IMG/VR virus record: IMGVR_UViG_3300025769_014498 | Span: 1-23,367 of that record | DNA: 23,367 nucleotides | Direction: 5' to 3' (one strand) | From: a virus | Translations under genes and position numbers: made by a program | Shown here: positions 1-21,578 of the stretch, one piece after another | Position numbering within the stretch: the first letter of the stretch is position 1 | Layout: each line of letters begins with the position of its first letter | The notes under the pieces: model-generated | Seen by the model: only the letters and a program-made list of their open reading frames with translations | What the model was told of the DNA's origin: nothing | The model's database searches: none

Positions 1-102
1 TGGGGTTAAGCTTAGTTGGTCTCTATCTCTAAGAGATTGAAGTAAACCTAAACTATTGCGTAACTCGATTTCAATTAAATCTTTAAATTGAGACATGACC
101 AT
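1..102 (-). CDS. hypothetical protein, 3' part outside window
   Basis: An open frame starts with ATG at 102 (or a second in-frame ATG at 96) and runs off the left edge of the window without a stop. The visible product begins MVMSQFKDLIEIELRNS and looks like the start of a charged, helical protein. The start overlaps the last codons of the folE gene, the same kind of stop/start overlap that links most genes here, so it is probably the next gene of the same transcript. Only about 34 residues are visible and I do not recognise them. The overlap and absence of stops support a real gene, but the length is too small to be sure. Confidence 0.5.
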   Translation of the reverse strand, partial: MVMSQFKDLIEIELRNSLGLLQSLRDRDQLSLTP

Positions 103-778
103 TATTAATTTTTAGTGAATCAAAAAACTCTTTACGTGCTAGGTTATCATTTTCCATAAACACACCAGATGCTTTAGTAGTTACCATAGCAGCACCTTGA
201 TGTTTGATACCACGGCAAGAAACACAATTGTGAGTAGCAACTACAGTTACAATAACACCTTTGTTACCTTCACATACTTTATCTACAGCTTGATGAATTG
301 CTGAAGTAAGTTGTTCTTGGATAGCGCCTCTACGGCCAAAATGCTCAACAATACGATTCAATTTAGACAAACCAATTACTTGACCATCAGCTCCAGCAAT
401 GTAACCAATATGAACTACACCTCTAATTGTTTGGTGGTGGTGTGAACACATTGAGGTAACAGGGATGTTTCGCTCAATAATTACTCCATCATAACCATCA
501 CTTGGGAATGAAGTAATTTCAGTAAAATTATCATAACGACCAGCAAACAAATCAAACACGTAAGCTTTAGCTACGCGACGGGGTGTTTCCATAGAATTAG
601 GATCGTTACGCCAATCAACTTTTAGGGCATCAAGGAATTTACCGAATGCTTCTTCGGCTTCATTTACCATTGACCATTTTTCTTTGTCTGTGAATGGGAA
701 GCCAGCTGCTACACCATTTGCCATTCCTACAGGAACGCACTCAATATCTTCGTGCTTTTTACGACGTTTGTTTTCCAT
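83..778 (-). CDS. folE: GTP cyclohydrolase I (FolE)
   Basis: Converts GTP to 7,8-dihydroneopterin triphosphate, the first step of both folate and 7-deazaguanine (preQ0) synthesis. The 231-residue product has the family signature: CSHHH at 111-115 (zinc Cys111 and His114, catalytic His113), VIGLSKLNRIVEHFGRR at 134-150, QEQLT at 154-158, and THNCVSCRG with the third zinc ligand Cys185. The C-terminal AMVTTKASGVF also fits. Length matches typical FolE (about 220). The first 35 residues are a variable basic/hydrophobic extension. With queD, queE, queC and a dpdA-like gene in the same block, its job here is most likely to feed preQ0 synthesis for DNA modification rather than folate. It is separated by 37 bases from the upstream phosphoribosyltransferase gene and overlaps the next gene. 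Confidence 0.95.
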   Translation of the reverse strand: MENKRRKKHEDIECVPVGMANGVAAGFPFTDKEKWSMVNEAEEAFGKFLDALKVDWRNDPNSMETPRRVAKAYVFDLFAGRYDNFTEITSFPSDGYDGVIIERNIPVTSMCSHHHQTIRGVVHIGYIAGADGQVIGLSKLNRIVEHFGRRGAIQEQLTSAIHQAVDKVCEGNKGVIVTVVATHNCVSCRGIKHQGAAMVTTKASGVFMENDNLARKEFFDSLKINNGHVSI

Positions 779-815
779 ATAACTTATTTATTTTGCGTGA
801 ATGTAATAAAATATT

Positions 816-1322
816 TTAGAGAGCCCAAATTGAGGGTAAATTTCTTAAATAACCTTTATCATTGTCCATTCCAAATCCTACCAACCACTCATTATCAATA
901 GTAAAGGCGTGGTATGATTTTTGTTTTGGAAGTGGTGATGTCATTCTAGTAACTAAAGATACAATTGAAATTGAGGCTGGGTGTTTGACTTCTAAATAAT
1001 CGATTACTGCCTGCATAGTATTACCAGTATCGTAAATATCATCTACTAAATAAACATGTTTGCCTTTAACGGGTGTCTCTAAATCTTTGGTGATTTGGAT
1101 GTCGCCCTGTTTGTTTTTGCTTATATACGATTTAACGCGCATAAAATCGCATTCTACGTCGATACTCATGTTACGCACCAAGTCCGCGTAAAACATAAAG
1201 GCACCATTTAATAAACCAACCATCACAACAGGTGTCTTATCCCCACGATGGTCATCAGCAATTTGCTTAGCTATAATTTTTGTTTGGATATCAATATCCT
1301 TTGCAGATAGTAATTCTCTCAT
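816..1322 (-). CDS. hpt: hypoxanthine/guanine phosphoribosyltransferase
   Basis: Transfers phosphoribose from PRPP to hypoxanthine or guanine, giving IMP or GMP. The 168-residue length is normal for the HPRT family. The PRPP loop VYLVDDIYDTGNT lies at 90-102, with Asp98 in the place of the catalytic general base. The purine-pocket segment WLVGFGMDNDKGYLRNLP at 146-163 matches the family's WxVGxGxD...YRNLP. It lies between folE and a nuclease gene, 3 bases from the latter. A DpdA-type enzyme releases free guanine when it inserts preQ0, and this enzyme could return that guanine to the GTP pool used by FolE. That link is an inference. It could equally recycle purines from degraded host DNA. Confidence 0.9.
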   Translation of the reverse strand: MRELLSAKDIDIQTKIIAKQIADDHRGDKTPVVMVGLLNGAFMFYADLVRNMSIDVECDFMRVKSYISKNKQGDIQITKDLETPVKGKHVYLVDDIYDTGNTMQAVIDYLEVKHPASISIVSLVTRMTSPLPKQKSYHAFTIDNEWLVGFGMDNDKGYLRNLPSIWAL

Positions 1323-1325
1323 ATA

Positions 1326-1676
1326 TTATCTTTTTTCTCCGTGGTATTCTACTGCGTGGCCTTCACTAATCAACAAATTATTTACACTATCTGAATTTTC
1401 AGTAAGAAAAATTTCTCCTAAACATCTACCATATTTTCCTACTCCATAAGAAACTAAAATAAATTTATTTTTATTTTCTTTTAAAATCTCTTTTAAACGA
1501 GCTTTAGCAGCTAATCCTCTAGCTTTTTCTTCTAAATCACGAGTTCGAGATTCTGGGGTATTAATTCCATTTAAACGGATACGGATTTGTTTCCAAGTAT
1601 CAAATCCTAAATCTACTAAAGCATCAATAGTGTCTCCATCAACTACTTTAGTTACAGTTGCATTGTAAGTATACAT
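1326..1676 (-). CDS. staphylococcal nuclease-like (thermonuclease) protein
   Basis: Small SNase-fold nuclease of 116 residues with no signal peptide, so probably cytoplasmic. The calcium/catalytic motif VVDGDTI is at 11-17 (Asp15). The segment RLNGINTPES at 34-43 keeps the catalytic Arg34 and Glu42, and YGRCLGE at 82-88 supplies the second Arg (Arg84). The calcium ligand Asp40 of the S. aureus enzyme is replaced by Asn39. The C-terminal LLISEGHAVEY is typical of the family. Its start overlaps the stop of the 42-residue gene upstream (TAATG). It may degrade host DNA or process nucleic acids; its presence among modification genes suggests it could act on unmodified DNA, but nothing in the sequence proves that. 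Confidence 0.85.
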   Translation of the reverse strand: MYTYNATVTKVVDGDTIDALVDLGFDTWKQIRIRLNGINTPESRTRDLEEKARGLAAKARLKEILKENKNKFILVSYGVGKYGRCLGEIFLTENSDSVNNLLISEGHAVEYHGEKR

Positions 1677-1804
1677 TATTTTTCTTTTAAAATTTCTCTT
1701 AATTTATCTATAAGAGCCAGAACTTCGTCTGGCTCCATAGTAATGGCACAACACACTGAAACATTTTCTTCTATTTTGTCTAATATTTCAAGTGCTTCTT
1801 CCAT
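1676..1804 (-). CDS. small hypothetical protein, 42 residues
   Basis: A 42-residue open frame fills the gap between queE and the nuclease gene exactly. It begins MEEALEILDKIEENV and ends DKLREILKEK. Its ATG overlaps the queE stop (TAATG at 1802-1806) and its own stop overlaps the ATG of the nuclease gene in the same way, which argues for translational coupling and for a real gene. The sequence suggests two short amphipathic helices around a Cys-Cys pair (VSVCCAITMEPDEV). It could be a small helical partner or regulator of a neighbour. I do not recognise a family. Confidence 0.65.
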   Translation of the reverse strand: MEEALEILDKIEENVSVCCAITMEPDEVLALIDKLREILKEK

Positions 1805-2613
1805 TATACTTGTCGTTTAGTATCGTAAGCAATAATGTGATCTCTACCAGTCATGTTATAGCCATGCTCAGCACACATTTCAAATACTTTAGGATACATT
1901 TCAATTAATGTTTTACGAGTATCTCCGGCAGGCATAACAAATGTTTTGTCTTTAGGAATACCGAGTTCGACTCTGTAAGTTTCGATTTCAGCGAGGCCTT
2001 CATCAGTGCCATCCCAGACAGGCTTATAGTGATAGTCAGCATGATAATCAAGAGTCGCTCTAATGGCTTCAGTATTAAGGCGAAGACGATTGTGTGTTTG
2101 AACCATCTTTTCATCTGTAACTGATCCATTGGGAGTAAGGGCACCAACAACAGGGACACTATTACTAAACTTAGGTGACAAAGAAATGAGGTTAATCGGA
2201 TAATCCGTTTCGAGGAAATGAGAACCTTCAGTCTCGATAGTAATAAAAATACCTCTTTCATTTGCAAAGTGGGTTAGCTCATTTACCAATGCTGGGTGCA
2301 TTGTTGGAGAACCTCCTGTTAACATCATTTCCTTGACGTGGGGGTTTTCGTCGTAAATTTTAATAATGTCATTAAACGTAAAGCCGCCCTTTTCAGGGTG
2401 AATGGATGTATACCAGGAATCACACCACCCACCTTCACCAAAATAGCAGCGGTGAGTACAGCCAGTAGTACGAACGGCAATCGTAGGACGTCCAAAACGA
2501 CTTCCTTCACTTTGCACACATCTATAAAGTTCCAATACTGGGAGAACTTTGTCATAATCTTCAATGCGACCTAATGGGGCCGACTTTTTCCATAATTTTT
2601 CGTTAATCGCCAT
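1804..2613 (-). CDS. queE: 7-carboxy-7-deazaguanine synthase (QueE), radical SAM
   Basis: Radical SAM enzyme that converts 6-carboxytetrahydropterin to 7-carboxy-7-deazaguanine, the third step to preQ0. The chosen start (MAINEKLWKK, 269 residues) overlaps the queD stop by 11 bases; an in-frame ATG 12 codons earlier would overlap queD much more. After LELYRCVQSEGSRFGRPT comes the substrate/SAM region AVRTTGCTHRCYFGEGGWCDSW, with cluster cysteines 52, 56 and 64. This CX3CX7C spacing differs from the usual radical SAM CX3CX2C. LTGGSPT at 98-104 is the family's GGEP-like motif with Ser for Glu. ETEGS at 127-131 and LSPKFS at 145-150 also fit QueE. It sits directly downstream of queD. Confidence 0.92.
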   Translation of the reverse strand: MAINEKLWKKSAPLGRIEDYDKVLPVLELYRCVQSEGSRFGRPTIAVRTTGCTHRCYFGEGGWCDSWYTSIHPEKGGFTFNDIIKIYDENPHVKEMMLTGGSPTMHPALVNELTHFANERGIFITIETEGSHFLETDYPINLISLSPKFSNSVPVVGALTPNGSVTDEKMVQTHNRLRLNTEAIRATLDYHADYHYKPVWDGTDEGLAEIETYRVELGIPKDKTFVMPAGDTRKTLIEMYPKVFEMCAEHGYNMTGRDHIIAYDTKRQV

Positions 2614-3067
2614 AAATAGCACTATTTTTACCGTGTTCCCTAAACTCAACTTTTACAACCTTAACACGACCAGAGGTTTCTTCGTTAATAAAAGTGTTGA
2701 GTTTTTCATAAATAAATTTAGCAAATTGTTCAGCACCTGTAGCAGGTACAACTCGTGTTTGGGTTAAACCATGAACATCCATTGCTTTAAATCCTTCTAG
2801 ATAAGGATCATCTTCAGCAACTACTAGGGTATGATCAAACATATACTCCATCCAATCTTTAGGAGACATACCATCAATAGTACCTTTGGCACGTTTCATA
2901 CCTCCAAAATCCCAAACCCAGTTACGTTCGTCAAGATCTCCTTCGAACCATACTTTAAAACTTACACCATAACCGTGTAAAAATCTACAATGTGTTCCTT
3001 CAGCTTTCCATTGACGGAATACTGTACTAAACCCGTCAAATACTTTTGTTGATTGAAATTTAGGCAT
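2603..3067 (-). CDS. queD: 6-carboxy-5,6,7,8-tetrahydropterin synthase (QueD), divergent
   Basis: Would convert dihydroneopterin triphosphate to 6-carboxytetrahydropterin, the second step to preQ0. The 154 residues carry the family core: THCRFLHGYG at 25-34 (catalytic Cys27, His31), NWVWDFGG at 49-56, the catalytic pair FDHTLV at 77-82, PATGAE at 108-113 and VEFREHG at 140-146. Two of three usual zinc histidines are changed: the FSxxH position reads FSTVF, and HGH reads HGY (Tyr33). From memory, a bacterial QueD-like subfamily shares the CRFLHGY form, so this is probably a natural variant rather than a dead enzyme; His26 may replace a ligand. The gene overlaps thioredoxin by 8 bases and queE by 11. 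Confidence 0.88.
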   Translation of the reverse strand: MPKFQSTKVFDGFSTVFRQWKAEGTHCRFLHGYGVSFKVWFEGDLDERNWVWDFGGMKRAKGTIDGMSPKDWMEYMFDHTLVVAEDDPYLEGFKAMDVHGLTQTRVVPATGAEQFAKFIYEKLNTFINEETSGRVKVVKVEFREHGKNSAIYGD

Positions 3068-3317
3068 TGTTAAAGTTATTATATTGTTCTACTAATAGTT
3101 GACCATCTTTTACTCCTACATGGCGAGCAAATTCTTTACCTGATTCATCAATTAAAATTACAGTTGGGACGCTACGAACAGAATATTCCATAGCCAACTG
3201 TTGGTTTTCATCTACATTTACTTTTTGAACAGGTACTGTTTGACCTACACGTTCCATAACAGGACCGTATTGACGACAAGGCCCACACCAGGGGGCGCTA
3301 AAATACAAATATTTCAT
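3060..3317 (-). CDS. thioredoxin
   Basis: Small thioredoxin-fold disulfide reductase of 85 residues, shorter than bacterial thioredoxin (about 105) because the first strand and helix are missing. The active site APWCGPC lies at 8-14 (Cys11 and Cys14) and the cis-proline loop SVPT at 49-52 (Pro51). The Asp of the VNVDE strand also fits. It probably reduces the phage ribonucleotide reductase, whose C-terminal CxxC is present at the other end of the window. Support for enzymes of the deazaguanine cassette, in which it is embedded, is possible. It overlaps queD by 8 bases and the small gene upstream by 4 (ATGA). Confidence 0.92.
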   Translation of the reverse strand: MKYLYFSAPWCGPCRQYGPVMERVGQTVPVQKVNVDENQQLAMEYSVRSVPTVILIDESGKEFARHVGVKDGQLLVEQYNNFNNA

Positions 3318-3508
3318 AATTCAGATTCTTTTATTAATTCGTTTCCTTTTTCTCTCATTAAATAGTAGGTGTTGGAAAGGTCCAAGGGTTTTGCCTTGGA
3401 CCAATCTGGTGAATATTGAAATCTTCCACCTTTTAAGCCAGTAAATACCTCACCATCTTGAGTTACTACTACATAACGTTCTGGGAGAATATATTTACTT
3501 CTTTTCAT
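3314..3508 (-). CDS. hypothetical protein, 64 residues
   Basis: Unrecognised small basic protein starting MKRSKYILPERYVVVT. It has a likely beta-rich middle (RYVVVTQDGEVFTGLKGGRFQYS) and a polar C-terminus. The start overlaps the stop of the upstream membrane-protein gene by one base (TAATG) and the stop overlaps the thioredoxin start by four, so it is clearly part of the operon. There are no cysteines, no membrane segment and no known motif. It may be a small accessory protein of the surrounding modification genes. Confidence 0.7.
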   Translation of the reverse strand: MKRSKYILPERYVVVTQDGEVFTGLKGGRFQYSPDWSKAKPLDLSNTYYLMREKGNELIKESEL

Positions 3509-3804
3509 TATACTAATTCTTCAATAATACCAATTCCTTCGCTTAATATAAGAAAAGTAACTGCCCAACCCAAATTAAAGGGTAGAAGAGCATACCCTAA
3601 AATGCGGACTCCTGATTTCATAAAACTTACATAACGATGCCATTTTTGATTAGGCATATATTTTTTAATTTCAGTATTCAATTTAATATCTTTAGTATTT
3701 TTAATTTTACCGTACAATTCTGGGTTGTGAATACTATCATTGTGATTGTATTTATTATTATCCCAATAAGTACCTCTACGTGCTTCTGTTATTCCATCAC
3801 TCAT
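3508..3804 (-). CDS. hypothetical protein with C-terminal membrane segment
   Basis: A 98-residue protein of unknown function. The start at MSDGITEARRG is preferred because it overlaps the queC stop by only 8 bases; the open frame extends 11 codons further into queC. The first 65 residues are polar and charged, with many Asn and Lys. The region from about 72 to 92 (VRILGYALLPFNLGWAVTF) is hydrophobic and could be one transmembrane helix or a membrane-associated hairpin. It lies between queC and a 64-residue gene in the modification block. No family was recognised, and a role in modification is not implied by its sequence. Confidence 0.7.
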   Translation of the reverse strand: MSDGITEARRGTYWDNNKYNHNDSIHNPELYGKIKNTKDIKLNTEIKKYMPNQKWHRYVSFMKSGVRILGYALLPFNLGWAVTFLILSEGIGIIEELV

Positions 3805-4651
3805 GACTAGCAAGTACTTTAGATACGTGTTCAACAACTGTTTCCCAACTTGCTACACCATTTTCATCAGCATACTCTACAGGATCAGGACGACCAAGTT
3901 TAATAAATGCTTCTACACGTTCAACTGATGATGCTGATTTATAATCTGAATACCATTTGTAAGCATTAGTTTCTGGGCGATGATAGATTTTAATTGGTTT
4001 ATAAGAAGTATTAGTACGTGAGTAAACTTCATCAAAATCAATTACTAAGTAATCACACAACCATTGCCCATCTTCCAAAATAGTAAACTTATCACCATTT
4101 AAATAAGGAGTATAAACAAATACTCTTTCAGAACCCCAGTTACCAGAACGGAATGCTTCAAAATCCAAGTCACGGAATTCTTGACGACAATCAGGATAGA
4201 TTGCGTGATCACCAGCATGAATTCCCATCGCAATTACAGTGTTTTCTTCCGTTTTATCTGCGATTGAAAGTGCTACTGCCTGAGTAATTGAAGCAAAGAT
4301 TTTATTGCGATTAGGAACAACAGTTGCTTTCATGTTTTCTTCAGCATAGTGTCCTTCAGGCACTTCATCTCCACCTTCTACCAAAGCAGAATTTAATAGG
4401 TCTGTTAAACCATCTAATTTGATTACTCGATAACGAACATCATAACCACTAGTTTTCAAATAATCAACTAATGATTGAGCTCGCTCTAATTCAACTCGGT
4501 GTTTTTGTCCGTAATCAAAAGACAAAGCCGTTACTGTATCAAATTCTTTGATACATTTAAGCAACAAAGTGCTCGAATCCATACCACCTGAAAGTGATAC
4601 TACTGCGTGTTTCGCATTCAATTTACCTAATTGGTCGTCTGTAAATAACAT
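3797..4651 (-). CDS. queC: 7-cyano-7-deazaguanine synthase (QueC), lacking the usual zinc cysteines
   Basis: ATP-dependent enzyme that turns 7-carboxy-7-deazaguanine into preQ0. The 284-residue product has the PP-loop SGGMDSS at 21-27, FDYGQKHRVEL at 45-55, VVPNRN at 111-116 and the family signature IYPDCRQEF at 151-159. In typical QueC a C-terminal zinc site is built from one Cys after the sheet plus a CGxCxSC cluster. Here the matching segments read TNTSYKP (213-219) and AYKWYSDYKSASS (230-242), with no cysteine, while the trailing AFIKLGRPDPV still aligns. Its partners folE, queD, queE and dpdA are nearby, so it is probably active. No amidotransferase domain is fused, so it gives no sign of the archaeosine-type branch. 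Confidence 0.92.
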   Translation of the reverse strand: MLFTDDQLGKLNAKHAVVSLSGGMDSSTLLLKCIKEFDTVTALSFDYGQKHRVELERAQSLVDYLKTSGYDVRYRVIKLDGLTDLLNSALVEGGDEVPEGHYAEENMKATVVPNRNKIFASITQAVALSIADKTEENTVIAMGIHAGDHAIYPDCRQEFRDLDFEAFRSGNWGSERVFVYTPYLNGDKFTILEDGQWLCDYLVIDFDEVYSRTNTSYKPIKIYHRPETNAYKWYSDYKSASSVERVEAFIKLGRPDPVEYADENGVASWETVVEHVSKVLASHE

Positions 4652-4694
4652 AATTTATATAATTTAAATTTGCCAGGTATTTTAAGCGTATAGG

Positions 4695-4895
4695 CTAACG
4701 CTTTTGTTGATTAAAATATTCATTTAAAAATTCACGACGGAACATATTTACAGGTCCCTTATACTTTGCATTTGCAACCATTTTTCTTTTAGTTGGTTCT
4801 CCTGCTTTACCAGCAGCTGTTGCTACTTCTAAACCTAGTTTTTCACCTGCGGGTTTTCCTAGGTAATCAAATAAACTTACGTATTCTTCTTCCAT
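4695..4895 (-). CDS. hypothetical protein, 66 residues
   Basis: Small protein beginning MEEEYVSLFDYLGKPAG and ending FLNEYFNQQKR. This start lies one base after the dpdA-like stop; in-frame ATGs 4 and 12 codons earlier overlap that gene. The segment LFDYLGKPAGEKLGLEVATAAG looks like a helix-rich folded domain, followed by a basic region (PTKRKMVANAKYKG). I have an impression of similar small proteins in other Bacteroidota phages, but cannot name a family. The position between dpdA and queC suggests a possible accessory role in DNA modification; this is inference from location only. Confidence 0.7.
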   Translation of the reverse strand: MEEEYVSLFDYLGKPAGEKLGLEVATAAGKAGEPTKRKMVANAKYKGPVNMFRREFLNEYFNQQKR

Positions 4896-4896
4896 A

Positions 4897-5685
4897 TTAT
4901 AGATCATTAATTTCTCTAAATTTATAAACATTATGAATTAAGTAATCATAATTAACTTGATCACTTAACATATAAAAATAATCATTCATGTTTGCTGTTG
5001 GTTTTTTATCTAAACCAGCATCAGTATAATAAATACCTTCTAAAGCAGCCATTACTGGATTTGAAGTATCAATTGATTCAATACAATCAATTCCTTTATA
5101 CCAACCAAATTCTTGAGGTACTTGACAACCCAGCAAATGCACTCTATCATCTTTAGTTAAAACACCTTGATTATATAGAGTACTTAAAACTACCATACGA
5201 CCTAAAGCTTTACCTAAATGTTTATTAGGGTGAGTTACAACATCATTGTAATAAGAAGCACCATAAGAATATGCAATTTTTTCATAACCTAAATCTTTAT
5301 AGGCCTGAGTGCAAGTAAATGCTTCATGGATAGTAGTTGCTTGAACAACAACTACTTTAGTAGTATTTTTAGGTAGAATAATTTTAGCCCATTCTTTAGC
5401 ATTTTCTACGGATGCATTTCTATCTTGCCAGACATCAGGTACAATAAATTCATCTGGTTCTAATTCAGAAATCCAATACATTAAACGTTCAGTATCATAT
5501 GCTTTTCCTAGCTCATGAAGTGAGTTGTCCATAATAATGTATCGACCTTTTGCTTTGGCTTGTCTAAAATATTCTAGATAACCTTCCTCCTCATCGAGTA
5601 AATGAGGCAAGCAATAGTCATAGTCGTTAAATTTTTCACTATCCCCCAGCAAACATAAAGGGGTTTCATGGCTTACTTTTATCAT
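4897..5685 (-). CDS. dpdA: DpdA-like DNA 7-deazaguanine transglycosylase (TGT family)
   Basis: Member of the tRNA-guanine transglycosylase superfamily; phage DpdA proteins exchange guanine in DNA for preQ0 or a derivative. The 262-residue length suits the short phage type and is well below bacterial TGT (about 375), with no zinc-binding CxCxxC. Visible motifs are YIIMDNSLHELG at 49-60 (Asp53, Glu58), VPDVWQD at 82-88 (Asp84), VVVVQATT at 111-118, the base-pocket-like HLLGCQVPQEFG at 183-194 and ESIDTSNP at 203-210, whose Asp206 is the likely nucleophile. Co-location with folE, queD, queE and queC strongly supports DNA rather than tRNA as target. The next gene starts almost on its stop. Sequence-specific targets cannot be read from here. 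Confidence 0.88.
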   Translation of the reverse strand: MIKVSHETPLCLLGDSEKFNDYDYCLPHLLDEEEGYLEYFRQAKAKGRYIIMDNSLHELGKAYDTERLMYWISELEPDEFIVPDVWQDRNASVENAKEWAKIILPKNTTKVVVVQATTIHEAFTCTQAYKDLGYEKIAYSYGASYYNDVVTHPNKHLGKALGRMVVLSTLYNQGVLTKDDRVHLLGCQVPQEFGWYKGIDCIESIDTSNPVMAALEGIYYTDAGLDKKPTANMNDYFYMLSDQVNYDYLIHNVYKFREINDL

Positions 5686-12013: not shown

Positions 12014-13723
12014 CTATCCATCGCAAGATACACAATCTACAGTTCTTGAACCAAGATCACCTTTAATTACTGAGTCTGTTCTTAGGTAATAAAGTGTTTT
12101 TACTCCTAACTTCCAGGCTTCCATATGCACCTGATTAATCCATTTTGGTGAATCAGTTGGGGCAAATGATAAGTTAAGAGATTGGGTTTGATCAATATAC
12201 TTTTGACGAATTGCTGCTTGTTGAACTAGAGCTAACTGGTTGATTTCTGGGAAGGTTAAGAATACTTCTTTTTCGTCCTCATTTAAAATTTCATGGGATA
12301 AGTTTTGAACTGAGCCATTATCTGCTAGGATTTGATCCCATACTTTTTCTGTGTTGTATCCTTTTTCGATTAATACTTTTTCTAATTCAGGATTTTTAAC
12401 AATGAATGTTCCCTTAGCACCATTAAACACATAAACGTTTGCTGGTTGGGGTTCAATTCCCGCAGAACAGTTATTAATACGTGAGTTAGATACTGTTGGA
12501 GCAATAGCTAACAAGTGTGTATTTCTCATACCTGTACCCTTACACCAAAGTGGTTCACCATATTCAACTGCCAATTTACGAGAAGCAGCTTCAGCTTTAT
12601 TTTTAATATCACTAAAAATTGTATGAGTCCAAGCTGTTGAAGCAATAGCATTAAATGGTAATCCTTTTTGTTGTAAGAAGGTATGCCAACCCATTACACC
12701 TAAACCAAGTGCACGACCTTTCTTAGCATGTCTGTGAGAACGAATCATTGAATCTTTACCATTGGTTTTTTCAATAAATTCTTCCATCACACCATCAAGG
12801 AAGTAAATCGCAGTTTCTACTACATCTGTGTTTTTCCATTCATCATACTTGGCTAAGTTCAAAGAACTCAAACAACAAATAAAACTATGTTCTTCATCTG
12901 TATGGAGTGTAATTTCTGTACAGATGTTAGTCATAGAAACATCTAAATTATTCATTAAATATGCTAGAGGATTTGCTTTATTAATATTATCCTTAAACAT
13001 AATATAGGGTTCTCCAGTTTCTACACGCGATTTAAGAATTTCAAGCCATAACTTCATCGCTTCAGGATCTCTATCGTTTAATCTACGCATAAAAGCATCA
13101 TCTACAACAACACACTGGTGCAAGTTCAAACATTGTCTATTTGGATCCCCTTTAGGTCTACGAATTTGTAAAAATTCATCAATATCTAAGTGATTGATAT
13201 CTAAATTTACTGATGCTGCTCCTCTACGTACTGAACCTTGGTTAGTTGCAATAATAGTTGAATCATAAATTTTAGCCCAAGGCACTACACCTTCTGATTT
13301 TCCGTTTCCTCGAATTTCTGTTCCTCGAGGTCTAATTCTGCTAAGGGAAATTCCCACGCCTCCCCCATAACTAGTAAGGCGCATAAGCTCTGCGTTAGTG
13401 AGTCCAATACCACGGATCGAATCCGGAGTATCAATACCAAAACAACTAATAGGCAAACCCCTGTCAGTACCAGTGTTACTGAGAACAGGAGAGGCAAGAC
13501 CAATCCATCCATTCCAAATATATTTAAAGAATTTATTTTCTAAATCAGGACGATTTAAACGCATAGCTACAGCATGTGCTACTCGTCTATATGCTTTACG
13601 AGGGGTTTCACCTGGTAGTAAGTATCCTTTTGAAATTGTAGACAAAGCTACATCATCCATGTATTCAGGAAAGTCTTTACCTCTTTCCCATTGTGTAAAA
13701 TCTGCTATTAAGTTGTTATCCAT
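12014..13723 (-). CDS. nrdA: ribonucleoside-diphosphate reductase, large subunit (NrdA)
   Basis: Class I ribonucleotide reductase catalytic subunit, which makes deoxynucleotides with NrdB. At 569 residues it is much shorter than E. coli NrdA (761) and lacks the N-terminal ATP-cone, so overall activity control by dATP should be absent. Active-site features are Cys94 (LPISCFG), the radical site NICTE at 266-270 with Cys268, Cys283 of CCLSSLNL, the radical-transfer tyrosines 545/546 (TLYYLRT), and the C-terminal shuttle cysteines 564/567 (CVSCDG), reducible by the phage thioredoxin. It follows nrdB with a 2-base gap. Supplying dNTPs for AT-rich phage replication is the likely role. Confidence 0.96.
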   Translation of the reverse strand: MDNNLIADFTQWERGKDFPEYMDDVALSTISKGYLLPGETPRKAYRRVAHAVAMRLNRPDLENKFFKYIWNGWIGLASPVLSNTGTDRGLPISCFGIDTPDSIRGIGLTNAELMRLTSYGGGVGISLSRIRPRGTEIRGNGKSEGVVPWAKIYDSTIIATNQGSVRRGAASVNLDINHLDIDEFLQIRRPKGDPNRQCLNLHQCVVVDDAFMRRLNDRDPEAMKLWLEILKSRVETGEPYIMFKDNINKANPLAYLMNNLDVSMTNICTEITLHTDEEHSFICCLSSLNLAKYDEWKNTDVVETAIYFLDGVMEEFIEKTNGKDSMIRSHRHAKKGRALGLGVMGWHTFLQQKGLPFNAIASTAWTHTIFSDIKNKAEAASRKLAVEYGEPLWCKGTGMRNTHLLAIAPTVSNSRINNCSAGIEPQPANVYVFNGAKGTFIVKNPELEKVLIEKGYNTEKVWDQILADNGSVQNLSHEILNEDEKEVFLTFPEINQLALVQQAAIRQKYIDQTQSLNLSFAPTDSPKWINQVHMEAWKLGVKTLYYLRTDSVIKGDLGSRTVDCVSCDG

Positions 13724-13725
13724 AA

Positions 13726-14712
13726 TTAAAAAATACTTTCATCCCACTCCATGTGGCCTTTTGAATAGTTAGTTACTCGGTTTGCAAAAAAGTCTGTATG
13801 TTGTTTACCTGCTGAGAGGTGATCAAACCATTTCATTCTTCCTACAGCATTCATATCAACATTGCCAACAATTGGTTTATATCCTAAATCTGATAATTTA
13901 GTATTTACTCTGTTTTTAATAAAATGCTCAAGGTCATATCTATTACAACCTTCTAGATCACCAAGTTCATAAACCTTATTAATAAAATCAAGTTCAAGTT
14001 GTAAAGAAAGTAAAGCGGCTTCATTTACTGCTGCTTCAAGTTCTGGTGTCTTGAGTTCAGGATTTTCCTCGATAAGTGTTCTAAATAACCAGCAGCCGGC
14101 TTCGGAGTGCATTGATTCGTCTCTAATAGACCATTCAACAATTTGACCCACTCCCTTAAGCTTGTTTCGCATTTTAAAAGATAAGAGAACGGCGAAGGAA
14201 GAGAATAAATTAACTCCCTCGGTAAATGCTGAGAATATAGCGAGTGATTTAGCGATTTCATGCCAATTCTTTTCACTATTAAAACTATCCCTAACTGACA
14301 TAAGATTCTCAATCTTAGCCATCGTAGCTTCATCTTCCATAAATTCGGCAAAGTTATCAAGTCCAAGTTCTTCATTTAAAAGTGAATATGCTTCAGCGTG
14401 GATTGTTTCAAATGCGCCGAAAGTAGTAGCCATCATTATCACCTCAGGTTTTCTAAACCATTTAGTTACCAATCCAGACCAATAATCGTTAACAATAGTT
14501 TCTGTTTGGGCAAAGCCCTTTAAAATAGAACCTACAATATTTTTTTCAGTTTCAGTTAAATTCTGTTTCCAGTCATTAACATCACTCATCATAGGTACTT
14601 CTGTATGCAACCAGTGTGCTTGTTGCTGTTTCATCCAGTAATCGTGTGCTTGAGGGTACTCAAACGGTTTGTAAACAATACGTTCTTGCAATAGAGATTT
14701 TTTCTTTGCCAT
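13726..14712 (-). CDS. nrdB: ribonucleoside-diphosphate reductase, small subunit (NrdB)
   Basis: Di-iron radical subunit of class I ribonucleotide reductase, 328 residues, near the family norm (about 320-375). Metal ligands are visible: Glu71 (TETIVNDYW), Glu102 and His105 (FETIHAEAY), Glu165 (FTEGVNLF), Glu199 and His202 (RDESMHSEAG). The radical Tyr109 is present in the ETIHAEAY motif, so this is a tyrosyl-radical type rather than the Phe variant of Chlamydia. The first ligand is Glu instead of the Asp found in E. coli. It lies between the helicase and nrdA genes as part of the same transcript. Confidence 0.96.
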   Translation of the reverse strand: MAKKKSLLQERIVYKPFEYPQAHDYWMKQQQAHWLHTEVPMMSDVNDWKQNLTETEKNIVGSILKGFAQTETIVNDYWSGLVTKWFRKPEVIMMATTFGAFETIHAEAYSLLNEELGLDNFAEFMEDEATMAKIENLMSVRDSFNSEKNWHEIAKSLAIFSAFTEGVNLFSSFAVLLSFKMRNKLKGVGQIVEWSIRDESMHSEAGCWLFRTLIEENPELKTPELEAAVNEAALLSLQLELDFINKVYELGDLEGCNRYDLEHFIKNRVNTKLSDLGYKPIVGNVDMNAVGRMKWFDHLSAGKQHTDFFANRVTNYSKGHMEWDESIF

Positions 14713-14731: not shown

Positions 14732-16096
14732 TTAGGAATTTAGTTCAAAAAACTTATTTTTCAACATTTGTTTATCAAATGTATCAAAACTATCATAACT
14801 GTTAGAGTTAGGTGAGGTAGTTTCTGTTTCTTCATCATCTGGATCATAATCATGAACTTCGAAATGGCCTGTAGAGGTATCGGCTTTTACACCAAAGGTT
14901 AAACCATCCATTCCGTATCTGTTCTTCATAATATGAAATCTACCTGTTCCGTTAACTTTATCTTTTCGTTTTCTTGAGAGGGAAATACATACATCAGTGA
15001 TCATAATTTTATCATACGACCCTGCAGCTTTATCTCCTTCTACAATATCATCTTTTGCACCTGCACGGTTTACTTGGGAAACACTCCAAATAGGAATATT
15101 TAATTCTCGAGCAAGCCCTTTAGTGCTAATATAAATATCATCTATTTCTCCTTTACGGTCCGCAGTACGCTTTCTTGTTGAAAGAAGATCAACATAGTCA
15201 ATAATAATTAAATCAGGCTTAACACCTAAGTCAGTTACTTTTTTAATATGTGATTCAATCGTGTTAATTGTTGCTTTACCTGTTGGAAACTCTTTAATAA
15301 TAAGTTGACCAGGTAATTCAGGTACAATTTCTTCAATTTTACTTCGGTTTTGAGTAATACGATCTACTGGGATTTTAGAGAAGAAAGCATCATAACGACG
15401 ACCTACATACGATTCCCCTAATTCAAGTGTGTAATGTAATACATTAAAACCTAATCTTACAGCATAACCACCTAGTGCAATTAAAGACCACGATTTACCA
15501 CCTCCTGGATTACCAAATATGAGACCAAAATCTCCATTTCCCAATCCACCTTGTAGAAGATCATTGATACGGTCCCAGGGAGTTGGGATAACTGTTCTGT
15601 GATCTTCTCTATAACGCGATTCAACATCTTTATTATATTCATGTCCAACATTTTTATCTTGTCCAGCTTTTAAAGCATTTTCAACCATTGACTTAATCGA
15701 ATCATAATCACCAGCTTTTAACAAATCAACACTATTTAAAAGTGCTTGTTTTAATTGTTGGTTCTTACAAAATGTTGAAAATTCTTCTCTTACATATTCT
15801 AAATCATCGGCTGATGCTTCATATGCTTCTCTAAGTTGTTCTCGAATTGAAACTTTAAGTACCTCATTTGTTACCTTTTTTAATTCTACTTTTAGAATAT
15901 CCATTGAAGGAGTTGTGTGGTACTTGTCATAATACCTTAGGATTTCTTTTATAATCCATTTATGTGCTTGGTTATCCCAGTATTCCTCACTAATAATATC
16001 ATGAATATTAGTTAAAAACTCTTTATGAGTTAATAGTGCTGATATTACTTTTATTTGGAATGCTGTACCATATTGGTTTAAACTTACTAGTGTCAT
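14732..16096 (-). CDS. replicative DNA helicase (DnaB/T4 gp41-like)
   Basis: Ring helicase that opens the replication fork, 454 residues. The N-terminal 150 residues are a helical DnaB-type domain. The RecA-like core has Walker A FGNPGGGKS at 194-202, the YTLELGES loop at 222-229, Walker B LIIIDYVDLL at 296-305 and the sensor/arginine-finger region SVSQVNRAG. The C-terminus is acidic and serine-rich, then basic. The gene overlaps the upstream flap-nuclease gene by four bases (ATGA), and the neighbours are replication genes, so this is the phage fork helicase. No primase domain is fused and none was seen in the window. Confidence 0.93.
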   Translation of the reverse strand: MTLVSLNQYGTAFQIKVISALLTHKEFLTNIHDIISEEYWDNQAHKWIIKEILRYYDKYHTTPSMDILKVELKKVTNEVLKVSIREQLREAYEASADDLEYVREEFSTFCKNQQLKQALLNSVDLLKAGDYDSIKSMVENALKAGQDKNVGHEYNKDVESRYREDHRTVIPTPWDRINDLLQGGLGNGDFGLIFGNPGGGKSWSLIALGGYAVRLGFNVLHYTLELGESYVGRRYDAFFSKIPVDRITQNRSKIEEIVPELPGQLIIKEFPTGKATINTIESHIKKVTDLGVKPDLIIIDYVDLLSTRKRTADRKGEIDDIYISTKGLARELNIPIWSVSQVNRAGAKDDIVEGDKAAGSYDKIMITDVCISLSRKRKDKVNGTGRFHIMKNRYGMDGLTFGVKADTSTGHFEVHDYDPDDEETETTSPNSNSYDSFDTFDKQMLKNKFFELNS

Positions 16097-17124
16097 TTAT
16101 TATAACTTAATTTTTCAAAAACATCTTTTACCCAAAACTCTAAATTCCTAATCATACCACCTAATTTATCTTCGTTATAGAATGCTATGAACTGGTCAGG
16201 AATATAATTTAAGTTTTTGGATTTTACAACCTGATTTAGATAATTTTTATCATTTTCATCTAACATAGGATTTGATAAATCCATGATTTTATAATTTTTC
16301 TCTAATGCATCAATATCTTGAATAATTCGAGCATAAATTACGTGTTCTTTAAATTTACCTTCACAGATGTTATAAACATCATCTAATGTTAGATCTTTTT
16401 CCTGAAGTTCAGGAAATAATTTGTACAACTTTTTTTCACCTAAACCCTTAACACCTTTAACTTTATCAGAATTATCACCCATAAGTGTTTTATAAATGAT
16501 AAAATTAGAAGGAGACATATTAAATTTTTCTTTAACTACTTCTTCAGTATAAAATTCTTTCTCCATTGGTCTATAAACAATAATATTTTTGTTTACTAAT
16601 TGAAGAAAATCTTTATCGGAAGAAACAATAAATACTTTATCTTTTTCTTGCTCAGGCAATACAGTACATAAATGAGCAATAATATCGTCTGCTTCTACTT
16701 TATCAAGTGATACAGTTTTAACTGGTAAGGTTTTTAAGTATTGGATGATACGAATAATTTGATCTACTTTAGCATCATCTTCATCATCATGACTATCAAA
16801 TACTTCCCAATTAGTGATACGTTGTAGGTTTCTACCTGATTTGTATTCGGGGAGCAGGTTTTTACGGTTATTAGCCGAACCTGCCCCATCGAATACTACA
16901 TAAACACTAGTTGGATCAATTTGACGTATTAGAGCACCCAGTGATCGAAAAAATCCACCAAGCCCCCCGACATGGACTCCATCAGGGTTTACAGCATTAA
17001 GCATTGCAAAGTTTCTAAAGAATAGATTTAAACCATCTATCATTAATATCCTTTGTCCTTCTACAGTCTCTTCTCCTTGCTCATCAAGGTTGTCGAGGAG
17101 CTTAAGTAAATCTTTCTTTTTCAT
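16093..17124 (-). CDS. 5'-3' flap exonuclease / RNase H (T4 Rnh-like)
   Basis: FEN-1/5'-nuclease family enzyme that removes RNA primers and flaps from lagging strands, 343 residues. The metal-binding acidic residues are in LMIDGLN (Asp30), VVFDGAG (Asp79), VEADDI (Glu144, Asp146, Asp147), SSDKDFLQL (Asp170, Asp172) and GDNSDKV (Asp217, Asp220). A helix-hairpin-helix signature follows (VKGVKGLGEKK, 222-232). The C-terminal 100 residues are a basic helical tail. The location between UvsX-like and helicase genes fits a T4-type replication cluster. Confidence 0.92.
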   Translation of the reverse strand: MKKKDLLKLLDNLDEQGEETVEGQRILMIDGLNLFFRNFAMLNAVNPDGVHVGGLGGFFRSLGALIRQIDPTSVYVVFDGAGSANNRKNLLPEYKSGRNLQRITNWEVFDSHDDEDDAKVDQIIRIIQYLKTLPVKTVSLDKVEADDIIAHLCTVLPEQEKDKVFIVSSDKDFLQLVNKNIIVYRPMEKEFYTEEVVKEKFNMSPSNFIIYKTLMGDNSDKVKGVKGLGEKKLYKLFPELQEKDLTLDDVYNICEGKFKEHVIYARIIQDIDALEKNYKIMDLSNPMLDENDKNYLNQVVKSKNLNYIPDQFIAFYNEDKLGGMIRNLEFWVKDVFEKLSYNK

Positions 17125-19107: not shown

Positions 19108-19581
19108 TTAAAGTTCAATAATTTTGTAAATCTTGGTTTTTAATTGTTTTAATTCATCGTGTTGAGTAAGTAGAATAGTATTTTTATAATGTTGCCATTC
19201 AATAGGAAATCTAGTATCAACTACACCACCATTTAAACGCTTAATTAATTCATTCAAAGCGTTAATAGTATAAAGTGTATTAGATTCCTTTTTACGGTGA
19301 ACTAAAATAGTATTAGGGGGGATATCAGACACGTTACCCTGATCAATGTTATAAGTACAAACGTACTCATCATTACTCTTAACGTGTAATACAAATATTT
19401 TATCGTACATCACCTTGTATCTAGATGTAATCCCATCAATTAGATTATCTAAATCTTCAAGTGTGGAAAATGTACAAAACAGTTTATTATTCAAATCGCG
19501 TATATTTAAAGTAGAAAAATCAATGAAATCGTCTACCTTATACATATGAGGGGATTTATCTAAAATCGTATGTGTCTCCAT
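19108..19581 (-). CDS. hypothetical protein between polymerase and SSB genes
   Basis: A 157-residue protein of unknown function, beginning METHTILDKSPHMYKV. An alternative start at the second Met (19545) would remove the 26-base overlap with the polymerase gene; the first has the more A-rich upstream sequence. The C-terminal half contains a striking segment NTILVHRKKESNTLYTINALNELIKRLNGG, then WQHYKNTILLT, which looks like a conserved folded domain. I have an impression of similar proteins near the polymerase in other phages. It does not resemble T4 RegA, the translational repressor found next to the T4 polymerase. Function unknown, perhaps replication-related. Confidence 0.75.
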   Translation of the reverse strand: METHTILDKSPHMYKVDDFIDFSTLNIRDLNNKLFCTFSTLEDLDNLIDGITSRYKVMYDKIFVLHVKSNDEYVCTYNIDQGNVSDIPPNTILVHRKKESNTLYTINALNELIKRLNGGVVDTRFPIEWQHYKNTILLTQHDELKQLKTKIYKIIEL

Positions 19582-20815
19582 AACTATATTTTACCTGTAA
19601 CTTGTGTTGGTTAAAAACTTTTAATATTTCTTTTATAACTTCTTTTTCATTTTTATCAAGGTCAAGCAAAAAACTATCATAAGTATATAATACCAATTTA
19701 GTATTTTTACCTTTTAATAACCTAAATATTTCCCACAATATACAAACGTTTGTAGACGTCTCCAAGTTTTGAAGAACATAATTCAACAACTTTTGTGGTT
19801 TCATATCTTCTAAATTCCACTCGGCAAAAATATGCCCCGAAATAGGGCTCTCAATCCAACCATTTTCTTGATAGTTTGCCCACAACTCGTCAGTATATAC
19901 TTGAACCTTTTTAAAGAATTCCAGCTCCTTATACTGTTCAAATACTCCTCCGTATAGTTGTTTAAATGTTAATTCTTTAGCTTTTTGATAATCCACCCCG
20001 TACATTTCGGCAAAAGCAGAGTGAATATCTCGCTCACCAAAATCATAGTCCACAAGATTAGCCAAAAGGGTAGGATGATAAGCGCTAATATCCAATTCAA
20101 ACAAATAGTCGTTACGCGGGATAAAACACTTTCTGTCTCCATTTTCTTTATTAATTGCGGCATAATTTACTCCTCCAAATCGGTTTGCGGGTCGTCCTGT
20201 AAGGGTTTTAAAGTTGAATTGAGTGTAGGTGTATTCTGAATCGAGTAAGTGAAAACGCGATTCAAATTCTTCTCTGTTAACTCGTAAACCACTTCTTTCA
20301 ATGGCGTTGAACACCACTGTGGCTCTGTCATTGTAAAACTTGTTAATTGGCTCATTTATTCTGTCTTTTAGATCTTCAAAAGTTTTCTTACAATATTCAT
20401 AGTGTTTTACTATCGGAATAATGCGGTTTATATCTTTTTTGTTTGGGAATTTTTGGTAAAAATAAGAATGAGTTTGTGTATATTCTTGTATATACGGAGG
20501 CGAGTTGAGTGTAATGTCAAAGAGCCCTTTTAAAATAAAATAATGTAAAAACTCTTTCTTATCGCGTACATATACACGTTTAAATTTATCTAATACACGT
20601 TTTACCTCGTTTATATTAAGCGACAAAGTCTCACTATGGTCAATCGATGTAATGTATCCTTTTGTTGAATTTAACGGTCGAATATAGATAGCACAAATAC
20701 CGTTTTCGACAGGATGAATTTTGTTTGAGTAAGGAATTATCTCAACGAATGCATCTTCGAAACCACTATTATATAACTCTTCTAATTGATCTTGACTTTC
20801 AATCAACCAATACAT
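19556..20815 (-). CDS. divergent family A DNA polymerase
   Basis: Probable phage replicative DNA polymerase, only 419 residues. Palm motifs are visible: TLTGRPANRFGGVN at 204-217 and KCFIPRND at 229-236 (thumb-palm), motif A FELDISAYHPTLLANL at 239-254 with Asp242, motif B AKELTFKQLYGG at 279-290 with Lys285, Tyr288 and Gly289, LNYVLQNLETS at 344-354, and motif C YTYDSFLLDL at 377-386 with Asp380. Motif C has Tyr and Ser around Asp instead of the usual HDE. The N-terminal 150 residues may be a degenerate 3'-5' exonuclease domain (FVEIIPYS replaces a DxE motif), so proofreading is probably missing or supplied in trans. It sits next to gp32, UvsX and gp41-like genes, where T4 has a family B enzyme. 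Confidence 0.82.
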   Translation of the reverse strand: MYWLIESQDQLEELYNSGFEDAFVEIIPYSNKIHPVENGICAIYIRPLNSTKGYITSIDHSETLSLNINEVKRVLDKFKRVYVRDKKEFLHYFILKGLFDITLNSPPYIQEYTQTHSYFYQKFPNKKDINRIIPIVKHYEYCKKTFEDLKDRINEPINKFYNDRATVVFNAIERSGLRVNREEFESRFHLLDSEYTYTQFNFKTLTGRPANRFGGVNYAAINKENGDRKCFIPRNDYLFELDISAYHPTLLANLVDYDFGERDIHSAFAEMYGVDYQKAKELTFKQLYGGVFEQYKELEFFKKVQVYTDELWANYQENGWIESPISGHIFAEWNLEDMKPQKLLNYVLQNLETSTNVCILWEIFRLLKGKNTKLVLYTYDSFLLDLDKNEKEVIKEILKVFNQHKLQVKYSYGDTYDFR

Positions 20816-20846
20816 AACTTTTGTTTTCCAATAATATAAGGAAAAT

Positions 20847-21578
20847 TTATGGAATCTCCCCGCTAGTTTTAGAATTTAATGAAACTTGGTAAGTTTTAAA
20901 TTCCTCAGAAGGTGGATTTTTAGAAGCATCATAAAATTTACCGTAATTAAAATTAAGAAATTCTTGTAATCCTCTTTTTTTAATCCTTCTTTCAGCAATC
21001 AAAACCATATTTCTATTAATAGTTTCTACTTCTTCTAAAGTTCCATTTAGGGTCCATGGGAGCTTAAATAATCGATACATAGCCCAATCATAGTCCCTAC
21101 TTTTATTGCGTATTTTTAAGAATGTTTCTTTATTTAATTCAATAAAAACAGTTTCATTTACTTTAGTACAAAAATATCTTGTAAAAGCTCCTAATTTATA
21201 ATCATCTAAAGTAGGTTGTGGATAATAAGTTGTTGGGATCTTTCTAACTTTACTTACATCAATTTTTTTAACTCGATTATAATCATTTACCATATCCATA
21301 TTTTGAGTTTGGTTCTGGTAGGTAAGGAAATCGTAGTTTTCAGCGTAATTTTCTATAAAAATAGCTCCTTCTGGTGGGGTTAATTCCCAAAGAAGTTTGC
21401 TTTGATCAATAGTAACTAATTCTTCACTAGGGAGATCATCAGGATTTTTACCCGTAAAGAATCTCCCATCGAAAGTAGCCCAATAAAATCCCTTGTATTC
21501 AGTTCCATCAATGAATTTTTGGTATTCACCTCCGCCGGTAAATAAATTAGTTTTTACTCTGTTCTTTGGTATGTACAT
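20847..21578 (-). CDS. probable virion structural protein (baseplate/tail region)
   Basis: A 243-residue protein beginning MYIPKNRVKTNLFTGGGEYQK. The N-terminal part (DGTEYKGFYWATFDGRFFTGKNP, about 24-46) is a Gly/aromatic-rich pattern that I associate with small structural proteins of T4-like marine phages. The rest is mixed, with a basic helical region (RRIKKRGLQEFLNF) near the end. Its start overlaps the stop of the upstream tail protein gene by one base (TAATG), so the two are expressed together. The structural assignment is an inference from this coupling and the pattern; no enzyme motif is present. Confidence 0.65.
   Translation of the reverse strand: MYIPKNRVKTNLFTGGGEYQKFIDGTEYKGFYWATFDGRFFTGKNPDDLPSEELVTIDQSKLLWELTPPEGAIFIENYAENYDFLTYQNQTQNMDMVNDYNRVKKIDVSKVRKIPTTYYPQPTLDDYKLGAFTRYFCTKVNETVFIELNKETFLKIRNKSRDYDWAMYRLFKLPWTLNGTLEEVETINRNMVLIAERRIKKRGLQEFLNFNYGKFYDASKNPPSEEFKTYQVSLNSKTSGEIP

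What the first reader, a model, noticed from the sequence alone, without database searches (positions are those of the whole stretch)
1..5685. Complete preQ0 pathway plus DpdA-like transglycosylase in one phage block
folE, queD, queE, queC and a dpdA-like gene lie in one block with small genes between them. Established knowledge: these enzymes make preQ0 and DpdA inserts 7-deazaguanines into phage DNA, protecting it from restriction. No QueF-like reductase or amidotransferase is seen here, so the simplest product is dPreQ0. The arrangement includes unknown small genes (3314, 3508, 4695, 1676) that could be new parts of the system.
Basis: partly seen in the sequence, partly recalled or inferred. 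Interest (0 to 1): 0.7.

Follow-up and report, generated by a model that had tools for sequence, protein, structure and literature searches.

The report
Guanine-swapping phage operon, likely recycler
A marine virus of bacteria carries a known kind of gene set that makes an altered guanine and swaps it into its DNA, and beside it lies a gene that probably recycles the guanine thrown out by the swap.

Summary
Confirmed: folE, queE, queD, queC and a transglycosylase gene lie in one minus-strand block. The DpdA-like protein has no named family, but its model (pLDDT 92.5) matches tRNA-guanine transglycosylases and the solved DNA insertase DpdA about equally (Z 17.0, 16.7). Its nearest isolate relatives are in Flavobacterium phage immuto and Campylobacter CP220. 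No QueF or formyltransferase was found in 27 related records, six of them 158-164 kb; dPreQ0 is the simplest product. The system is of a known kind.

In 38 comparable loci that slot holds this enzyme (24), a xanthine-guanine-type one (9) or neither (5); a quick tree needs 3 exchanges. In isolate phages the xanthine-guanine type occurs almost only in lineages with preQ0 genes (32 of 34 records, by lineage), and a PRT-like domain is fused to FolE in some Vibrio, Pseudomonas and Stenotrophomonas phages. I propose that it returns guanine released by DpdA to the GTP pool that feeds FolE. QueC lacks all four zinc cysteines (as do 86 of 87 distinct complete relatives) and QueD two of three zinc histidines. 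No chemistry was tested.

The parts
1..102 (-). start of a MazG-like pyrophosphohydrolase gene, runs off the window
   Evidence: in L005, 99.9% identical over the overlap, this frame continues to 221 aa at 15584-16249 and matches immuto's protein annotated nucleoside triphosphate pyrophosphohydrolase; such a match is present in 29 of 38 loci with folE
83..778 (-). folE, GTP cyclohydrolase I
   Evidence: PF01227 E 5.3e-43, PHROG 2197 E 1e-56
816..1322 (-). hypoxanthine-guanine phosphoribosyltransferase, proposed guanine recycler
   Evidence: TIGR01203 150.2 bits against cut-off 150; solved HPRTs down to E 1.6e-27; slot
1326..1676 (-). staphylococcal-nuclease-like endonuclease
   Evidence: PF00565 E 3.9e-11, PHROG 452 E 2.3e-40; in 20 of 36 loci with queE and folE
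1676..1804 (-). 42-aa ORF of unknown function
   Evidence: in 14 of 36 loci with queE and folE
1804..2613 (-). queE, radical SAM; cysteines spaced CX3CX8C
   Evidence: TIGR03365 E 4.2e-14, below cut-off; alignment with phage and E. coli QueE
2603..3067 (-). queD, with F and Y in place of two zinc histidines
   Evidence: PF01242 E 4.8e-14; alignment with E. coli QueD; relatives
3060..3317 (-). thioredoxin-like protein
   Evidence: PF00085 E 1.5e-15; in 57 of 57 loci with queC and queD
3314..3508 (-). 64-aa ORF of unknown function
   Evidence: in 9 of 57 loci with queC and queD
3508..3804 (-). small protein, hydrophobic towards its C-terminus (by eye)
   Evidence: in 45 of 57 loci with queC and queD; ATG at 3804, the listed frame opens with TTG at 3837
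3797..4651 (-). queC without the zinc cysteines, catalytic motifs kept
   Evidence: PF06508 E 6.7e-37; motifs; model pLDDT 84.1 matches solved QueC 2pg3, E 9.8e-11
4695..4931 (-). small protein of unknown function
   Evidence: in 29 of 74 loci with dpdA and queC
4897..5685 (-). dpdA, short guanine transglycosylase of the immuto/CP220 branch
   Evidence: 39% to immuto, 35% to CP220; model pLDDT 92.5; TGT fold, Foldseek E 4.8e-8; Z 16.7 to DpdA 7ui4

Best explanation
The block is a phage DNA-modification operon. FolE, QueD, QueE and QueC turn GTP into preQ0 (7-cyano-7-deazaguanine). DpdA, a minimal transglycosylase, then exchanges guanine in phage DNA for preQ0 and frees one guanine per exchange. 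The embedded guanine phosphoribosyltransferase turns that guanine back into GMP, which kinases raise to GTP for FolE: a closed guanine loop. The modified DNA resists host restriction. Shown here: gene identities, transglycosylase fold, conserved order, a phosphoribosyltransferase in the slot. Inferred: chemistry, product, recycling, protection.
For: DpdA: model pLDDT 92.5, pTM 0.89; the 50 listed Foldseek rows are transglycosylases, best E 4.8e-8; VIA Z 17.0 to archaeosine TGT 1iq8 (rmsd 3.0, 230 aligned) and Z 16.7 to the DNA preQ0 insertase DpdA 7ui4 (rmsd 3.2, 230 aligned), a tie; D53, D84, Q115 and D206 invariant in 39 of 39 sequences including immuto, CP220 and phiST. QueC keeps the four motifs described in PMC13329287; QueC of CP20, a phage of the species of CPt10, departs from YxQxHxxE, and CPt10 and CP220 carry dADG in place of all dG (PMC8306585). 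No QueF or formyltransferase in 27 of 27 related records, with immuto ringing for both. Phosphoribosyltransferase: HPRT in 24 and XGPRT-like in 9 of 38 loci, between queE and folE, 5 without; per 95% DpdA cluster 17, 8 and 4 of 29; 3 exchanges between the two kinds on a quick four-gene tree, 2 of them forced by well-supported branches. IMG/VR searched with each enzyme: 48 of 54 HPRT and 48 of 49 XGPRT-like loci with enough flank lie by at least two que/dpdA genes. Of 50,697 isolate phage records the XGPRT-like query hits 34, 32 of them in lineages with que genes (one or two records of each lineage opened). PRT-FolE fusions next to queD in Stenotrophomonas Bhz54, Pseudomonas Baskent_P4_1 and Vibrio 033B, in two of them also next to a transglycosylase gene.
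Against: No chemistry was measured. Most que phages show no PRT: PF00156 rings in 3 of 11 isolate records (immuto, phiST, and pf16 in a longer frame of other kind), though it misses CP220 and CP20, where tblastn finds one. Five of 38 loci lack the enzyme in the slot. In CP220 and phiST the PRT is not beside dpdA. Pfam does not see the PRT domain in the three fusions, NCBIfam only in the Vibrio one. A PRT can act on a deazaguanine base: TubE uses CDG (PMC6112128). Inheritance of a compact operon could explain part of the co-occurrence, and the IMG/VR searches were seeded from this operon and capped at 80 loci each.
Confidence: 0.72

Rival explanations
1. The phosphoribosyltransferase acts on preQ0 or another 7-deazaguanine and makes a nucleotide that enters DNA through the polymerase; DpdA would be a second route.
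For: TubE of the tubercidin pathway is a CDG-specific phosphoribosyltransferase encoded with GTP cyclohydrolase I, CPH4 synthase and a radical SAM gene (PMC6112128, passages). Ribonucleotide reductase genes lie in the same window, 12014-14712.
Against: 160 of 160 PRTs keep DDIxD(T/S)G, whose last Asp is thought to contact purine N7, absent from 7-deazapurines (motif counted; its role is recalled, and TubE itself was not compared). A pattern for the C-terminal base-site motif matched only 41 of 80 HPRTs and 58 of 80 XGPRT-like. Two PRT subfamilies named for guanine, hypoxanthine and xanthine swap in the slot. With DpdA a nucleotide route is not needed.
Confidence: 0.2
2. The PRT is a general purine-salvage gene that raises nucleotide supply during infection and merely travels with the operon.
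For: HPRT can salvage hypoxanthine or guanine from any source; the operon is compact and inherited as a block; 6 of 54 HPRT loci with enough flank lack two que/dpdA genes.
Against: 32 of 34 isolate records with the XGPRT-like enzyme are of que lineages; a PRT-like domain is fused to FolE in several phages.
Confidence: 0.25
3. The modified base is dADG or a further derivative rather than dPreQ0, because QueC stops early or an unseen enzyme acts later.
For: CP220, a near relative by DpdA, carries 100% dADG (PMC8306585, citing Crippen 2019); immuto has QueF and a formyltransferase.
Against: QueC keeps all four motifs, unlike CP20 QueC; QueF and formyltransferase not found in 27 records. ArcS, DpdM and DpdL were not tested.
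Confidence: 0.25
4. The genes supply queuosine precursors for host tRNA, and the DpdA-like protein acts on tRNA.
For: The fold is equally close to tRNA transglycosylases.
Against: 262 aa, shorter than the TGT chains matched (342-577 residues); the relative in immuto is annotated as a DNA enzyme and CP220, which holds another, has modified DNA (PMC8306585).
Confidence: 0.07

Closest known systems
Phage preQ0 plus DpdA systems, second group of Hutinet et al. 2019 (PMC6884629, passages seen)
   Same: FolE, QueD, QueE, QueC and a DpdA without an amidotransferase; members Rosebush and CAjan carry dPreQ0 at about 28 and 32% of G
   Different: DpdA of another branch, QueC and QueD short of zinc ligands, and a PRT within the block
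Flavobacterium phage immuto (Immutovirus), MW353176
   Same: DpdA 39%, QueC 70%, QueD 74%, NrdA 75% identical; short XGPRT-like PRT next to folE
   Different: queC and dpdA lie some 15 kb apart; immuto has QueF and a formyltransferase
Campylobacter Firehammervirus (CP220, CP20)
   Same: DpdA homologue (35%), que genes, an XGPRT-like PRT
   Different: Genes scattered; dADG replaces all dG in CP220 and CPt10 (PMC8306585); CP20 QueC keeps zinc cysteines but not YxQxHxxE
Tubercidin cluster (PMC6112128, passages seen)
   Same: GTP cyclohydrolase I, CPH4 synthase and a radical SAM gene with a phosphoribosyltransferase
   Different: Makes a nucleoside antibiotic; its PRT acts on CDG; no transglycosylase in the gene table seen

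Membership tests
Phage preQ0/DpdA DNA modification system | FolE, QueD, QueE, QueC encoded together | tested here: met
   QueE and QueD below their NCBIfam cut-offs
Phage preQ0/DpdA DNA modification system | Transglycosylase fold and conserved catalytic positions in DpdA | tested here: met
   residue roles recalled
Phage preQ0/DpdA DNA modification system | No downstream enzyme (preQ0 subgroup) | tested here: inconclusive
   QueF and formyltransferase absent in 27 records, most of them fragments; QueC shows no Gat domain; ArcS, DpdM and DpdL not tested
Phage preQ0/DpdA DNA modification system | 7-deazaguanine in virion DNA | not testable with these tools
   needs mass spectrometry
DpdA3 subfamily (name and definition recalled from Cui et al. 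2023, not held) | CP220 branch, complete guanine replacement | tested here: inconclusive
   best isolate matches are immuto and CP220; replacement not testable
Canonical QueC (PMC13329287) | SGGxDS, YxQxHxxE, VPxRN, YPDC motifs | tested here: met
Canonical QueC (PMC13329287) | C(x)8CxxCxxC zinc motif | tested here: not met
   absent in the window and in 86 of 87 distinct complete relatives
QueD (6-carboxytetrahydropterin synthase) | Three zinc histidines | tested here: not met
   aligned to E. coli QueD, two of three are F and Y; that these are the zinc ligands is recalled
Hypoxanthine-guanine phosphoribosyltransferase | NCBIfam TIGR01203 cut-off | tested here: met
   150.2 bits against 150
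Hypoxanthine-guanine phosphoribosyltransferase | PRPP motif DDIxDTG | tested here: met
   DDIYDTG in the window; 80 of 80 HPRT relatives keep DDIxD(T/S)G

The most novel reading that the evidence does not exclude
Phage 7-deazaguanine DNA modification can be a closed guanine cycle: DpdA ejects guanine, a dedicated guanine phosphoribosyltransferase (HGPRT, XGPRT-like, or fused to FolE) returns it to the GTP pool from which FolE starts the next preQ0. The part was recruited or exchanged repeatedly in unrelated phage lineages. In this marine branch the pathway has also lost zinc sites from QueC and QueD.
Probability: 0.45. Interest if true: 0.68.

Novelty: new variant of a known kind. Interest (0 to 1): 0.52.

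Why it matters
DpdA swaps bases, so each modified position should release a free guanine; I found nothing in print on where it goes (searches; two key papers not held). A guanine-salvage enzyme in the operon, exchanged between two subfamilies here and fused to FolE elsewhere, gives a directly testable answer and a marker for such systems. It may also give a role to phage genes now listed as phosphoribosyltransferase or plain GTP cyclohydrolase. QueC and QueD without zinc ligands raise the question whether zinc is needed for these steps.

Tried and rejected
Weak QueF matches in three of 27 records lie inside the folE frames of L077, L078 and L079, and FolE proteins cross-match PF14489 elsewhere, so I do not count them as QueF. 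The protein searches for QueF and formyltransferase had no positive control; the family searches with immuto included supply one.

Zinc-free QueC as a phage invention was dropped: of 85 frames examined (80 from genome contigs, 5 from viral contigs), 80 keep at least three core motifs and none has the zinc motif; 5 frames did not read as QueC. By record title they include Poseidoniales, Pirellulaceae and Cysteiniphilum. They are the 80 most similar of 529 found, so no random sample.

HPRT proper in isolate phages: 18 of 50,697 records match; 15 have no annotation, one is titled Salmonella enterica and two Acinetobacter phage. None was opened. I take most for bacterial DNA, from their titles only. 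The link in isolates therefore rests on the XGPRT-like type.

A first motif count for the QueC replacement segment used a faulty pattern and was redone. QueD gave no PDB match by sequence at E 0.01; DpdA gave only weak rows, the DNA-guanine transglycosylase 7ui4 at E 0.15 among unrelated ones. Two fecal contigs among the 34 XGPRT-like hits were not assigned to a lineage; one was fetched and not analysed. 18 incomplete QueC frames were left out of the zinc counts. For the flank-filtered counts 26 of 80 HPRT and 31 of 80 XGPRT-like loci were left out as too short.

Literature seen: PMC6884629, PMC8306585, PMC6112128, PMC11500664 and PMC12783734 in passages; PMC13329287 abstract, passages and the first part of its results. 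Searches for phage with HGPRT and 7-deazaguanine, for phage, guanine, transglycosylase, salvage, preQ0 and phosphoribosyltransferase and for QueC, QueD, phage and zinc-binding gave listings without anything on these points that I could see. Crippen 2019 and Cui 2023 are not held; either may discuss the Campylobacter PRT, and what I say of Cui 2023 is recalled.
Full report
What is there. The window is a 23,367-base virus record; its long frames are on the minus strand. In the direction of transcription the block is dpdA, a small gene, queC, two small genes, thioredoxin, queD, queE, a 42-aa ORF, a nuclease-like gene, HPRT and folE. A MazG-like gene starts at the left edge. In L005, a contig 99.9% identical over the overlap, it continues and is followed by what looks by eye like a B-type DNA polymerase. 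Further right the window holds ribonucleotide reductase, helicase, exonuclease, recombinase, single-strand-binding and endolysin-like genes and unknowns; 19108-23367 was not scanned.

DpdA. Sequence libraries do not name it. In isolate phages 31 of 50,697 records match at E 0.01, best immuto (39%) and CP220 (35%). The model, from 36 sequences, has pLDDT 92.5. Foldseek's listed rows are transglycosylases; re-alignment gives archaeosine TGT Z 17.0 and the bacterial DNA insertase DpdA 7ui4 Z 16.7 (rmsd 3.2, 230 aligned), a tie. D53, D84, Q115 and D206 are invariant in 39 of 39 sequences; I take them for the TGT catalytic and base-binding set (roles recalled). The fold alone does not say DNA or tRNA; the neighbours and relatives point to DNA.

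Pathway and product. QueC keeps SGGxDS, YxQxHxxE, VPxRN and YPDC, motifs reported in PMC13329287, and its model (pLDDT 84.1) matches solved QueC. QueF was sought by family and by the immuto protein, the formyltransferase by the immuto protein and by family, in 27 related records, six of them 158-164 kb, three of which (L057-L059) look like near-copies. No match stood except three weak QueF rows that lie inside folE. Immuto itself rings for both families. Hence dPreQ0 is the simplest product and dADG the main alternative. Complete replacement of guanine, reported for CP220 (PMC8306585, passages), is possible for this branch but untested.

The phosphoribosyltransferase. Of 81 loci examined, 38 hold dpdA, queE and folE. 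Between queE and folE, 24 have the HPRT, 9 (immuto included) a short enzyme of the xanthine-guanine type (best NCBIfam match NF006613 in the four scanned, below its cut-off; solved purine and xanthine-guanine PRTs by profile), and 5, one clade, neither. One of the three of those five whose records were searched has a PRT elsewhere. On a quick tree of four genes the two kinds need 3 exchanges, 2 forced by well-supported branches; immuto sits on a long branch. Searching IMG/VR with each enzyme, the best 80 of 95 and of 505 or more loci were kept. At least two que/dpdA genes lie near 69 of 80 and 65 of 80; with at least 2.5 kb on the left and 3 kb on the right, near 48 of 54 and 48 of 49. In isolates the phiST enzyme hits 34 of 50,697 records: 15 Campylobacter, 5 Cellulophaga, 5 Vibrio, 4 Flavobacterium, 2 Brevundimonas, 1 Synechococcus and 2 unassigned fecal contigs. 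I opened one or two records of each of the six named groups, and each carries que genes; the 32 of 34 rests on these. The five Vibrio hits cover only 39% of the query, at E about 1e-3, and lie in genes annotated as or taken for FolE. In Synechococcus phage BUCT-ZZ01 the PRT lies between queE and queD, in Brevundimonas StAshley next to folE. A second query, the L037 enzyme, hits 18 records, 17 of them in such lineages or in FolE genes, one a fecal contig.

The fusion. The gene called GTP cyclohydrolase in Vibrio 033B, Stenotrophomonas Bhz54 and Pseudomonas Baskent_P4_1 has 297-300 codons. FolE occupies residues 117-296. The first 110 or so carry an RGG loop, a DDIIDSG motif and a WVVFPWE end like the short PRTs (by eye, for two of the three). 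tblastn with the L037 PRT finds this part in the Pseudomonas and Stenotrophomonas genes (E 5e-5 to 4e-4), NCBIfam in the Vibrio one (E 1.1e-7); Pfam sees it in none. At least 80% of the Vibrio protein is matched in 33 of 392 records with any match, so most FolE-bearing phages lack it.

Mechanism. A transglycosylase returns one guanine for each base it inserts (established for TGT). Salvage by a PRT would return it to GMP and, by kinases, to GTP, which FolE consumes. The fusion puts two ends of that loop in one protein. The rival, a PRT acting on the deazaguanine, has a precedent in TubE (PMC6112128). Against it, 160 of 160 PRTs keep DDIxD(T/S)G, though a pattern for the C-terminal base-site motif fitted only 41 of 80 and 58 of 80. 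I rate recycling at about even odds.

Zinc sites. In QueC all four cysteines are gone from a conserved segment, TSYKP to SDYKSASSVER. Of 87 distinct complete relatives 86 lack the zinc motif; the exception is a 31%-identical QueC in L196. Immuto and, in another way, Rhizobium phage N17 lack it; CP20, CAjan, phiSM, Eaglehorse, pf16, VH7D and E. coli keep it. Relatives from marine archaea and planctomycetes share the loss. QueD has F and Y at two of the E. coli zinc histidines, as do immuto, phiST, phiSM, N17 and MA9V-3; pf16 has only the Y; CAjan and Eaglehorse are canonical there. In the first set of IMG/VR relatives 52 of 57 read F/Y, 4 I/Y or L/Y, and 1 did not fit the pattern.

Noticed in passing
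L274, L330: The QueC frame of two Poseidoniales contigs seems to run on into a methionine-sulfoxide-reductase-like domain, by eye from the tail sequence.
   Followed up: no
L066:180-8528: One contig seems to hold a second set of queC, small gene, thioredoxin and queD upstream of dpdA.
   Followed up: no
12014-13723: The NrdA-like protein is only 569 aa; its match to the PHROG 84 profile starts at position 202. Immuto has a form 75% identical over the whole length.
   Followed up: partly
L261-L265, L272: Genome bins labelled Pelagibacter, Flavobacteriaceae, Woesearchaeota and others hold QueC 61-70% identical to the window's; possibly phage contigs misplaced in bins.
   Followed up: no
L089:3001-3867: Rhizobium phage N17 QueC lost its zinc cysteines by another replacement; five viral relatives (51-87% identical) also lack the motif.
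   Followed up: partly
1804-2613: QueE cysteines are spaced CX3CX8C, shared with immuto and phiST, unlike CX3CX2C of E. coli and CAjan in the alignment.
   Followed up: no
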